From assembly GCF_014647475.1 (NCBI RefSeq), contig NZ_BMPG01000002.1:310001-374000 (forward strand): a stretch of 64,000 nucleotides of DNA, read 5' to 3'. The position numbers and the translations under genes are program-made. The stretch comes from Halocalculus aciditolerans (GTDB taxonomy: Archaea; Halobacteriota; Halobacteria; Halobacteriales; Halobacteriaceae). The first letter of the stretch is position 1. Each line of letters begins with the position of its first letter. This document shows, piece after piece, positions 56,286 through 58,913 of the stretch. Below the pieces are notes generated by a model. It was not told where the DNA came from and did not search any database. It was given only the letters and a program-made list of their open reading frames with translations.

Positions 56286-56328
56286 GACTTCTCCGACCCC
56301 GCTCTCTCACAGCCGAGAGCGACCGCTC

Positions 56329-58818
56329 TCACTCGTCCTCCGCCGTCAGTCCCTCCCGTAGCCCGCGAACGATTGCCTCTAAGTCCTCCGAGTCGACGTC
56401 GAGGTCCAGCGAAATCGCGTGTGGCTGCGACGCTGCCGGCTCACCGGCCGACACCGCCGGGCCACCGCCCGACGCCGCCTGCTCGGCCGCCGACTCCGCC
56501 CGCTCCGCCGCAGCCTTCGCCTCCGCCGCCGCCTCCCGCGCCTCCTCCGCTGCGTCCGCGATATCCGAAATCACGCCCTCGGCATCCGCGCCAACTCCCT
56601 CCACACCCGCCTCGGCGACGTCTTCACTGCTCTCCTCACCCTCGGCTTCGCCGGAACCTTCGGTGACTTCCTCCCCGTTCTCCTCGCCGCCTGCTCCGTC
56701 GGCGTCCGCAGCTCCCTCCGCTCCACCGTCTTCATCGCCCGCTTCGCCGGCCTCTTCGGCGGCGTCCTCGTCACCGTCCTCGCCCCCCGCTTCGTCAGCG
56801 TCTTCGGCGGCGCTCTCGCCGTCTTCGCCGGCTTCGCCTCCCGTATTCGATTCGTCGGCCGCCTCTCCCACGCTTTCCTCGTCGGCGGCCGCTTCGTCGT
56901 CACTGCCCGCTTCTTCCGCGCTCTCGGGTCCCCGTCCGCCCTCGTTCCCGGCTGCGTCGTCGTTGCCGACGGAGATGGTGATGCCGGGACCGGCGTCGAT
57001 GTCGATGCGGACCGTGTCGTCGTCTTCGACGAGTTCGACCGCGCTGTCGTCGTCGACCGTTCCGCCGTCGGTTTCGAGGTTCTCGTGGTCGATGTCGACT
57101 CCCAGCGGCGAGTCGCTGCCGAGTTGGAGGTCGTCCGGCAGGTCGATGTCTCGGAGGTCGACGTCGTCGTCGATGTGAATCTCGACGCCGGACTCTTCGT
57201 CGACCGAGAGCTCGACGCCGGAGTCACCGAGCGAGATTTCGACCGCGTCCTCGAAGAGGTCGCGCGCCGCTGTCTCGACCGCATCTTCGACCTCCTCACC
57301 GCCGGCTTCGACCGGCTCGGTGGATTCGCCCCCTGCGGGTTCGGTCCCGCTCGGCTCGACAGCCGACTCGACCGCCTCTGCGGGTTCGGTCCCGACCGAC
57401 TCGATAGCCGACTCGAGTTCCTCCGCGGCGTCACCGGTGCCCGCGGCCGCGTCCTCGGCCGACTCCGCGTCCGTGCTCGTCGCCGGTTCGCTGCTCTCGC
57501 GTGCGGCGGCGACCTCGCGGGCCGCGTCGGCGGCGTCCGCGGCGGCCTCGGCGGCGCGCTCGACGTCCGCGGTCGCTTCGCTCACCAGTGTTTCGGCTGT
57601 CTCGGTGGCCGTCTCCGCTGCAGTCGCTTCGGCGGCTGACGCCGCGACGTCCTCCGCGGCCTCACGTGCGGCGTCGCGCGCGGTGTCTCGGGCGACTCGC
57701 GCGGCGGTCTGTTCGGCGGCCTCCGCCGCCGCCTCTTCCGCCACCGTTCTCGCGGTCTCGCGCGCCGTCCGCGCCGCGACCTCCCGCGCGACTGACGCCG
57801 CCGTCTCCTCGGCGGTGGCTCTCGCGGTCTCCTCGATGGCCTCGGTCTCCACTTCCTCGGCCACCGACCGGGCGGTTTCGGCCGCGTCGACGGCGGTTTC
57901 GGCGGCCTCGTCGAGCTCGTCCGCGGCGTCCCCGACGACGTCCTCGGCGGCCGACTCCGCCCGCTCCGCCGCGGTTTCGGCGGCGACGTTCCGCGCGGTC
58001 TTCGCCGCGGCCTCCTCGGCGGCCTCGCGAGCCGCCTCTCGTGCGGTCTCCCGCGCTGTGGTCTCGGCGACGTTTCGCGCGGCCGCTTCGGCCGTCGATT
58101 CGGCGGTTTCTGCGACTGTCTGCTCCGCGACGTCCTCGATCGTCTCTTCGAGCGTCTCCGCTGCCTCGACCGGCTCGCCGGCCGACGTCTCTTCACCTGT
58201 ATCTTCGACCGCCTCTCGCGCGGTCGCTGCGGCGTCGACCGCTTCGCGTGCGGTTTCACCCGCTCGCTCGACCGCCTCGATGGTGCCGTCCGCCGACCCG
58301 GCCTCGTCGCTCTCGTCGGCGGGGAGGCGGTATCTGTCGTCGGCGTCCCGGTCGAGGAGCCCCGTCCACTCGTAGAGGTCGAGGAGCGTCTCGATGCCGG
58401 GTTCGACGCGGGTGGTTTCGAGGTCCTTCCCGGCGAGGTCCGCGGTCGTCTCGACGAGGTCGACTTCCGGGACGCCGCCGTCCGCGTCGGCGACGGCGTC
58501 GCGCACCTCCTCGGTGAGCGGCCAGTCGGCGAGGAGGGCGCGGGCGTGCTCGCGAGCGCGGTCGTCGTTCCCTTCGAGGAGCGCGCCAGCGAGCTCTCGT
58601 CCGTCCTGCGTGAGTTCGTGCTCCCGGTCGTGGCGTTCGAGCACGCCGAGCGATTCGAGGAAGCGGCTCTGCCGGCCGACGGCGTCGCGGATCCCCGTGA
58701 CCGACTCGACGTCCGACGTGTACTTCGGCTCCGTCGCGGCTCCCGCCTCGGCCCACCCGGCGATGATCTCTCGGAGGGTATCGAAGTCGACGCCCTTCGG
58801 GATGTGGTAGTCGGTCAT
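56329..58818 (-). CDS. Large Ala/Glu-rich coiled-coil protein with tandem winged-helix-like N-terminus
   Basis: An 829-residue protein I do not recognise. Two winged-helix-like segments, about residues 11-80 (ending FLESLGVLER...HELT) and 100-166 (ending LYEWTGLLDRDADDRYRL), open it. Residues about 180-470 are an almost unbroken run of A-R-E/T-A-x-E-A units forming long heptad/hendecad coils. A beta-like acidic segment (about 540-640; ELSVDEESGVEIHID and VRIDIDAGPGITISV) follows. Then come an E/G/D-rich low-complexity stretch and a final helix pair (ISLDLDVDSEDLEAIVRGL). No cysteine, signal or membrane helix is visible. A structural or DNA-organising role is a guess. Confidence 0.8.
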   Translation of the reverse strand: MTDYHIPKGVDFDTLREIIAGWAEAGAATEPKYTSDVESVTGIRDAVGRQSRFLESLGVLERHDREHELTQDGRELAGALLEGNDDRAREHARALLADWPLTEEVRDAVADADGGVPEVDLVETTADLAGKDLETTRVEPGIETLLDLYEWTGLLDRDADDRYRLPADESDEAGSADGTIEAVERAGETAREAVDAAATAREAVEDTGEETSAGEPVEAAETLEETIEDVAEQTVAETAESTAEAAARNVAETTARETAREAAREAAEEAAAKTARNVAAETAAERAESAAEDVVGDAADELDEAAETAVDAAETARSVAEEVETEAIEETARATAEETAASVAREVAARTARETARTVAEEAAAEAAEQTAARVARDTARDAAREAAEDVAASAAEATAAETATETAETLVSEATADVERAAEAAADAADAAREVAAARESSEPATSTDAESAEDAAAGTGDAAEELESAIESVGTEPAEAVESAVEPSGTEPAGGESTEPVEAGGEEVEDAVETAARDLFEDAVEISLGDSGVELSVDEESGVEIHIDDDVDLRDIDLPDDLQLGSDSPLGVDIDHENLETDGGTVDDDSAVELVEDDDTVRIDIDAGPGITISVGNDDAAGNEGGRGPESAEEAGSDDEAAADEESVGEAADESNTGGEAGEDGESAAEDADEAGGEDGDEDAAEEAGEAGDEDGGAEGAADADGAGGEENGEEVTEGSGEAEGEESSEDVAEAGVEGVGADAEGVISDIADAAEEAREAAAEAKAAAERAESAAEQAASGGGPAVSAGEPAASQPHAISLDLDVDSEDLEAIVRGLREGLTAEDE

Positions 58819-58840
58819 AGCTGGGGGTTCCCACGAAGCC

Positions 58841-58850
58841 GCAAAAAATC
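58841..58850 (-). promoter_or_regulatory. TATA box of the coiled-coil gene
   Basis: The minus strand reads GATTTTTTGC, centred 27 bases before ATG 58818, a leaderless arrangement. Confidence 0.6.
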
Positions 58851-58882
58851 CGGCGGCCGGGCGGACGACCGCGGAGCCAAAG

Positions 58883-58889
58883 CTTTATT
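58883..58889 (+). promoter_or_regulatory. TATA box of the HTH-CBS gene
   Basis: CTTTATT is centred 27-28 bases before ATG 58914. The two divergent TATA boxes lie only about 40 bases apart, so the genes share one control region. Confidence 0.6.
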
Positions 58890-58913
58890 CATTACCTGTG
58901 GTTATGAGCGGGT

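What the first reader, a model, noticed from the sequence alone, without database searches (positions are those of the whole stretch)
56329..58818. 829-residue Ala/Glu-rich coiled-coil protein with two N-terminal winged-helix-like segments
Seen: two similar N-terminal segments (about residues 11-80 and 100-166) each end in a 'small helix, G-x-L, charged wing' pattern, and a ~290-residue A-R-E-A coil follows. An acidic beta-like segment and a disordered E/G/D tail complete it. Inference: DNA binding at one end plus a long coil could bridge DNA or form filaments, like SMC-independent nucleoid or partition proteins. The acidic coil argues against plain DNA wrapping. Its leaderless promoter faces that of an HTH-CBS regulator only about 40 bases away.
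Basis: partly seen in the sequence, partly recalled or inferred. Interest (0 to 1): 0.68.

Follow-up and report, generated by a model that had tools for sequence, protein, structure and literature searches.

The report
Tandem winged-helix protein, expandable acidic arm

Summary
The 829-residue ORF (56329-58818, minus strand) is real and has homologues in about 28 of 391 haloarchaeal genomes. Structure prediction of residues 1-170 (pLDDT 94.7) shows two winged helices. Conserved basic residues sit in the first recognition helix and in the wings, so DNA binding is likely but untested. The spacer between them ranges from 8 to 649 residues, so the coil is dispensable. In this protein's seven-member clade the coil repeats every 4.0 residues, not every 3.5 as a coiled coil would. 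The HTH-CBS neighbour is coincidental: 27 relatives have DUF555 and HTH-CBS directly adjacent, and none of 31 homologue loci has that gene. The gene therefore appears inserted into a conserved block. Distant relatives carrying one of the two conserved ends lie beside a HerA-type ATPase, a restriction-like nuclease, or CRISPR genes. Best reading: a horizontally acquired DNA-binding adaptor with a long acidic tether and a C-terminal docking or oligomerisation motif. Nucleoid bridging or partition is not supported.

The parts
56329..58818 (-). whole gene, 829 residues
   Evidence: homologues
58573..58785 (-). winged helix 1 (residues 12-82): H12-24, H34-41, H46-57 (recognition helix), wing strands 60-63 and 66-69, H71-81
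   Evidence: AlphaFold2 pLDDT 94.7; invariant R49 and Q50
58321..58524 (-). winged helix 2 (residues 99-166): H100-110, H118-128, H138-152 (recognition helix), wing strand 162-164
   Evidence: R137, R157 and R164 conserved
57493..58299 (-). Ala/Glu/Thr-rich helical arm (residues 174-442) with a 4.0-residue repeat; length variable in the family, absent from short homologues
56998..57243 (-). acidic strand-like segments (residues 526-540 and 594-607), recognisable in most long homologues, low model confidence
56587..56997 (-). disordered Glu/Gly/Asp/Ala tail (residues 608-744)
   Evidence: pLDDT about 30; composition
56470..56583 (-). Ala-rich helix (residues 746-783)
56347..56424 (-). conserved C-terminal strand-helix motif (about residues 799-824, PHAISLDLDVDSEDLEAIVRGLREGL)
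   Evidence: alignment A2; also present on a different protein with two winged-helix-like segments; helix 810-824
58842..58849 (-). TATA-like element about 27 bp upstream of the start codon, consistent with a leaderless transcript
   Evidence: sequence; inference

Best explanation
It is a long-armed member of an unnamed, patchily distributed, horizontally moving family of haloarchaeal tandem winged-helix proteins. Residues 1-168 bind DNA, most likely at a particular sequence or structure, through recognition helix 46-57 and the two wings (inferred). The C-terminal strand-helix motif (about 799-824) is an interaction or oligomerisation element (inferred). The acidic middle, made of a roughly 270-residue helix, strand-like segments and a disordered tail, is an expandable spacer. 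If fully extended it could hold the C-terminal motif tens of nanometres from the DNA (inferred: 269 residues at 0.15 nm is about 40 nm). The likely role is a DNA-bound adaptor or regulator, possibly in genome defence, not a structural nucleoid filament. Shown by computation: the fold, the conserved ends, the variable middle, the inserted position, the patchy spread. Inferred: DNA binding, what the motif does, the role.
For: Fold: residues 1-170 at pLDDT 94.7, pTM 0.89, helix-helix-helix-wing twice. Structural neighbours: the FokI/Nt.BspD6I enzymes (best E 4e-3, TM 0.60 by query; that the match lies in their DNA-recognition part is inferred) and Sso10a. Sequence: weak winged-helix matches, HVO_A0261_N in 26 of 29 members (best 4.4e-6) and Sso10a by profile (0.0046). 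The recognition helix is the most conserved element, with R49/Q50 invariant and R52, H67, R137, R157, R164 conserved. Conserved ends around a spacer of 8-649 residues. The gene sits in a block whose two flanking genes are 30-185 bp apart in 27 relatives; host families mix in the tree; one homologue is on a 603-kb plasmid. The C-terminal motif recurs on a different protein next to a HerA-type ATPase in two genomes. A distant member outside the class lies next to a winged-helix/Mrr-like nuclease.
Against: No DNA-binding data. Foldseek E-values are weak (none below 0.001). The defence contexts belong only to distant relatives; the window gene and its close homologues have no shared neighbours. 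The C-terminal motif is poorly modelled. Profile matches are below the curated cut-offs.
Confidence: 0.5

Rival explanations
1. A DNA-bridging or filament-forming nucleoid or partition protein: the coil dimerises or polymerises and links DNA segments.
For: Tandem winged helices; a predicted helical arm of about 270 residues; weak similarity to Sso10a, a winged-helix DNA-binding protein with a coiled coil; one homologue on a large plasmid.
Against: The arm is absent from 216-245-residue homologues. Its periodicity is 4.0, not 3.5, in this clade. Only about 7% of genomes carry the gene, so it is not a housekeeping nucleoid protein. No ParA-like gene adjoins it in the window; neighbours of the homologues were not all annotated.
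Confidence: 0.12
2. The winged helices bind protein or RNA rather than DNA, and the acidic arm (net charge about -195 for the whole protein) acts as a nucleic-acid mimic or sink.
For: Very acidic arm and tail; winged helices are sometimes protein- or RNA-binding, and the RNA-binding SelB winged helices also appear in the fold search.
Against: Recognition-helix and wing basic residues are conserved. High acidity is ordinary for haloarchaeal proteins (general knowledge). Short homologues have no acidic arm.
Confidence: 0.15
3. A subunit of an uncharacterised defence or mobile-element system in which tandem-winged-helix proteins carrying the C-terminal motif work with an ATPase or nuclease.
For: Distant relatives lie beside HerA-type ATPases, an Mrr-like nuclease, CRISPR-cas-like ORFs (L057) and a conserved partner ORF; the tree shows horizontal spread.
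Against: No such partner adjoins the window gene or is shared by its close homologues; no PADLOC match for the window N-terminal module; the HerA-linked proteins share the C-terminal motif but were not shown to share the N-terminal module.
Confidence: 0.2
4. A local regulator of the divergent HTH-CBS gene.
For: Divergent start codons 95 bp apart, TATA-like elements about 41 bp apart.
Against: HTH-CBS is conserved in 38 of 40 genomes. None of the 31 homologue loci has it nearby, and the site is empty in 27 relatives.
Confidence: 0.03

Closest known systems
Sso10a (Sulfolobus winged-helix DNA-binding protein; PDB 1r7j, 1xsx)
   Same: winged-helix fold of the first domain; weak profile match (E 0.0046) and Foldseek probability 1.0
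   Different: Sso10a is about 95 residues with one winged helix and an antiparallel coiled coil; here there are two winged helices, a 4-residue-repeat acidic arm and a C-terminal motif
FokI / Nt.BspD6I type IIS enzymes (recognition part)
   Same: best overall fold match of residues 1-170 (TM 0.60 by query)
   Different: E only 4e-3; about 9-10% identity; no nuclease domain seen in the window protein
HVO_A0261_N (PF25213)
   Same: 26 of 29 family members match weakly over winged helix 1
   Different: below the curated cut-off of 35 bits; the window protein scores 13.8 bits
C-terminal AAA-associated domain (PF09821)
   Same: 6 of 29 members match weakly across both winged helices; two proteins beside the distant homologue and one in the HerA module match above cut-off
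   Different: the window protein itself has no match
DUF5343 (PF17278)
   Same: recalled architecture of N-terminal winged-helix-like part, linker, and strand-helix C-terminus (memory only, a lead)
   Different: no hmmscan match in any of 29 members

Membership tests
Tandem winged-helix DNA-binding proteins (general kind) | two winged-helix folds in tandem | tested here: met
   AlphaFold2 pLDDT 94.7, secondary structure H-H-H-wing twice
Tandem winged-helix DNA-binding proteins (general kind) | binds DNA | not testable with these tools
   only conservation of basic residues in recognition helix and wings
Sso10a | winged helix plus antiparallel two-stranded coiled coil | tested here: not met
   winged helix matches weakly but arm periodicity is 4.0, not heptad
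HVO_A0261_N (PF25213) | score above curated cut-off (35 bits) | tested here: not met
   13.8 bits; a related member 23.2 bits
AAA_assoc_C (PF09821) | score above curated cut-off (27.6 bits) | tested here: not met
   no match for the window protein; best of 29 members E 0.0026
DUF5343 (PF17278) | match to the Pfam model | tested here: not met
   no match in 29 members at E up to 10
DUF5343 (PF17278) | profile-profile relation of N- and C-terminal parts | not tested
   no DUF5343 alignment could be assembled
FokI-type restriction enzyme | nuclease domain | tested here: not met
   no Pfam match in the 829 residues; middle and tail are helix, low-confidence strands and disorder
Nucleoid-bridging or partition protein with coiled coil | coil conserved in homologues and heptad-like | tested here: not met
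   spacer 8-649 residues; period 4.0

The most novel reading that the evidence does not exclude
The C-terminal strand-helix motif is a shared docking tag used by several kinds of haloarchaeal tandem-winged-helix proteins to recruit a common partner such as a HerA-type ATPase. The window protein would be a version in which DNA recognition and docking are separated by a very long acidic helix with a four-residue repeat, a molecular boom.
Probability: 0.17. Interest if true: 0.68.

Novelty: new variant of a known kind. Interest (0 to 1): 0.4.

Why it matters
It defines an unnamed protein family (no Pfam or NCBIfam match above cut-off) with conserved ends and an extremely elastic middle: a natural length series from 8 to 649 residues for asking what spacer length does. 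It also links a C-terminal motif to a second kind of protein that sits beside a HerA-type ATPase, a testable lead to an uncharacterised archaeal system. The four-residue-repeat helix is unusual and its structure in high salt is open. It also corrects a tempting misreading: the long coil and the HTH-CBS neighbour are not the functional core.

Tried and rejected
Internal duplication of the two winged helices by sequence: no support. Viral or phage relatives: none in IMG/VR or INPHARED. Defence-family membership of the window N-terminal module: no PADLOC match. HTH-CBS partnership: rejected by empty sites. DNA-level tandem repeats as the source of the 4-residue period: only weak, diverged 12-base arrays. 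A first genome-contig scan with the single sequence found nothing; an alignment of closer homologues found 13. Four weak hits of the first genome search (L060-L063) were set aside as not homologous over the whole module. Literature on HVO_A0261 or DUF5343: no paper in the library.

Full report
What is there. The ORF at 56329-58818 (minus strand) encodes 829 residues. The whole protein has no match in Pfam or NCBIfam above cut-off. It is coding: the N-terminal 170 residues have relatives in 28 of 391 genomes of the class at E<=1e-5 (32 at E<=1e-3), with one full copy in this genome. GC by codon position is 0.81/0.52/0.83.

Anatomy from homologues. I translated 28 homologous proteins from 27 loci. 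All share the N-terminal ~168 residues (alignment A1). All but one end in or near a motif of about 30 residues, consensus HALSL..DLDADPEDLE.LVR.IR.GL (alignment A2). The exception, L045, has an in-frame stop in the coil; the reading frame stays open to the motif after it. The spacer between the two ends runs from 8 residues (a 216-residue homologue) to 649 (Halospeciosus flavus). The conserved unit is therefore the two ends; the coil is optional. A tree of the N-terminal module puts this protein in a seven-member clade of long forms (support 95/91) that mixes host families, consistent with horizontal movement. One homologue lies on the 603-kb plasmid of Halarchaeum sp. CBA1220.

Fold. AlphaFold2 on residues 1-170 with 13 homologues gives pLDDT 94.7 and pTM 0.89: H12-24, H34-41, H46-57, strands 60-63 and 66-69, then H71-81, H85-97, H100-110, H118-128, H138-152, strand 162-164. 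I read this as two winged helices joined by helices 71-97. The two halves are not detectably alike in sequence. Foldseek's best matches are the nickase Nt.BspD6I (E 4e-3, TM 0.60 by query); FokI (E 3e-2, TM 0.55), SelB winged helices, MarR proteins and Sso10a follow among others. No E-value is below 0.001, so this supports the fold class, not homology. By sequence, 26 of 29 members match HVO_A0261_N weakly (best 4.4e-6; window 0.056), and the profile's best PDB match is Sso10a (0.0046). Conservation peaks in recognition helix 46-57; R49 and Q50 are invariant, and K8, R52, H67, R137, R157 and R164 are conserved. DNA binding is therefore likely but not shown.

The arm and tail. The full-length model has helices 174-210, 217-322 and 326-442 at pLDDT roughly 45-80, low-confidence strands near 526-540 and 594-607, a disordered stretch 608-744, a helix 746-783 and a C-terminal helix 810-824. 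The arm's hydrophobic pattern repeats every 4.0 residues; none of 500 shuffles reaches it, and the heptad period 3.5 is not enriched. All seven members of this protein's clade peak at 4.00-4.08, while most longer homologues outside the clade peak at about 3.5-3.6. A 4.0 period is not that of a left-handed coiled coil. The DNA shows only weak, diverged 12-base arrays, so the pattern is kept at the protein level or by old expansion.

Surroundings. That gene is in 38 of 40 relatives. In 27 of the fetched loci it directly follows DUF555 across 30-185 bp, usually with the proteasome beta gene beyond DUF555. In the window the same block is interrupted by the 829-residue gene (2628 bp, 56286-58913, between DUF555 and HTH-CBS). 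Among 31 homologue loci, none of the seven window neighbours tested was found at E 1e-8; at E 1e-4 there is one weak HTH-CBS-like match, in L040 (30% identity). The gene was thus most likely inserted into an old block, and the head-to-head promoters are a by-product.

Distant relatives. Three short, divergent members (L057, L058, L059) are followed by a conserved ORF of about 325 residues with no Pfam or PADLOC match; of 61 genomes searched, the two with that ORF are two that carry the family member beside it. L057 lies near a CRISPR-like repeat array and cas1/cas2/cas4-like ORFs, read from the sequence. A member outside the class (L137/L158) sits between a winged-helix protein and a winged-helix/Mrr-like nuclease. 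The C-terminal motif alone finds a different protein with two winged-helix-like segments in two genomes (L150, L156), each followed by a HerA-type ATPase, with an opposite-strand wH-like protein (AAA_assoc_C match shown for L160) beyond. That L150 and L156 contain winged helices is my reading of the sequence, not a model. These contexts suggest, but do not show, a link to genome defence.

Verdict. The best explanation is a horizontally acquired DNA-binding adaptor with an expandable acidic spacer and a C-terminal interaction motif (confidence 0.5). It is a new variant of a known kind.

Noticed in passing
window 58891-58905, and DUF555/HTH-CBS gaps in relatives: The promoter of the HTH-CBS gene carries an inverted repeat ATAAC-N5-GTWAT just downstream of its TATA box, present in 25 of 25 gap sequences checked (9 with perfect arms); the window copy reads ATTAC-N5-GTTAT. 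It looks like an autoregulatory operator.
   Followed up: partly
L159 5251-9442 and L160 5143-9903: A conserved gene set in two genomes of different families: small wH-like ORF, motif-bearing protein of about 315 residues, HerA-type ATPase with a coiled-coil-like C-terminal part, and an opposite-strand wH-like protein. It may be an undescribed module.
   Followed up: partly
L158 6193-9472 (G497): Three same-strand genes: a 447-residue winged-helix protein, a distant family member of 224 residues, and a winged-helix/Mrr-like nuclease fusion of 355 residues; possible restriction-like system outside the class.
   Followed up: partly
L057 6740-9295: Two divergent members of the family flank a conserved ORF of about 325 residues, a few kb from a CRISPR-like repeat array and cas1/cas2/cas4-like ORFs.
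   Followed up: no
L045 (G066), coil region: One Halobacterium homologue has an in-frame stop in the coil while the frame stays open to the C-terminal motif; pseudogene, sequencing error or two-part gene not resolved.
   Followed up: no
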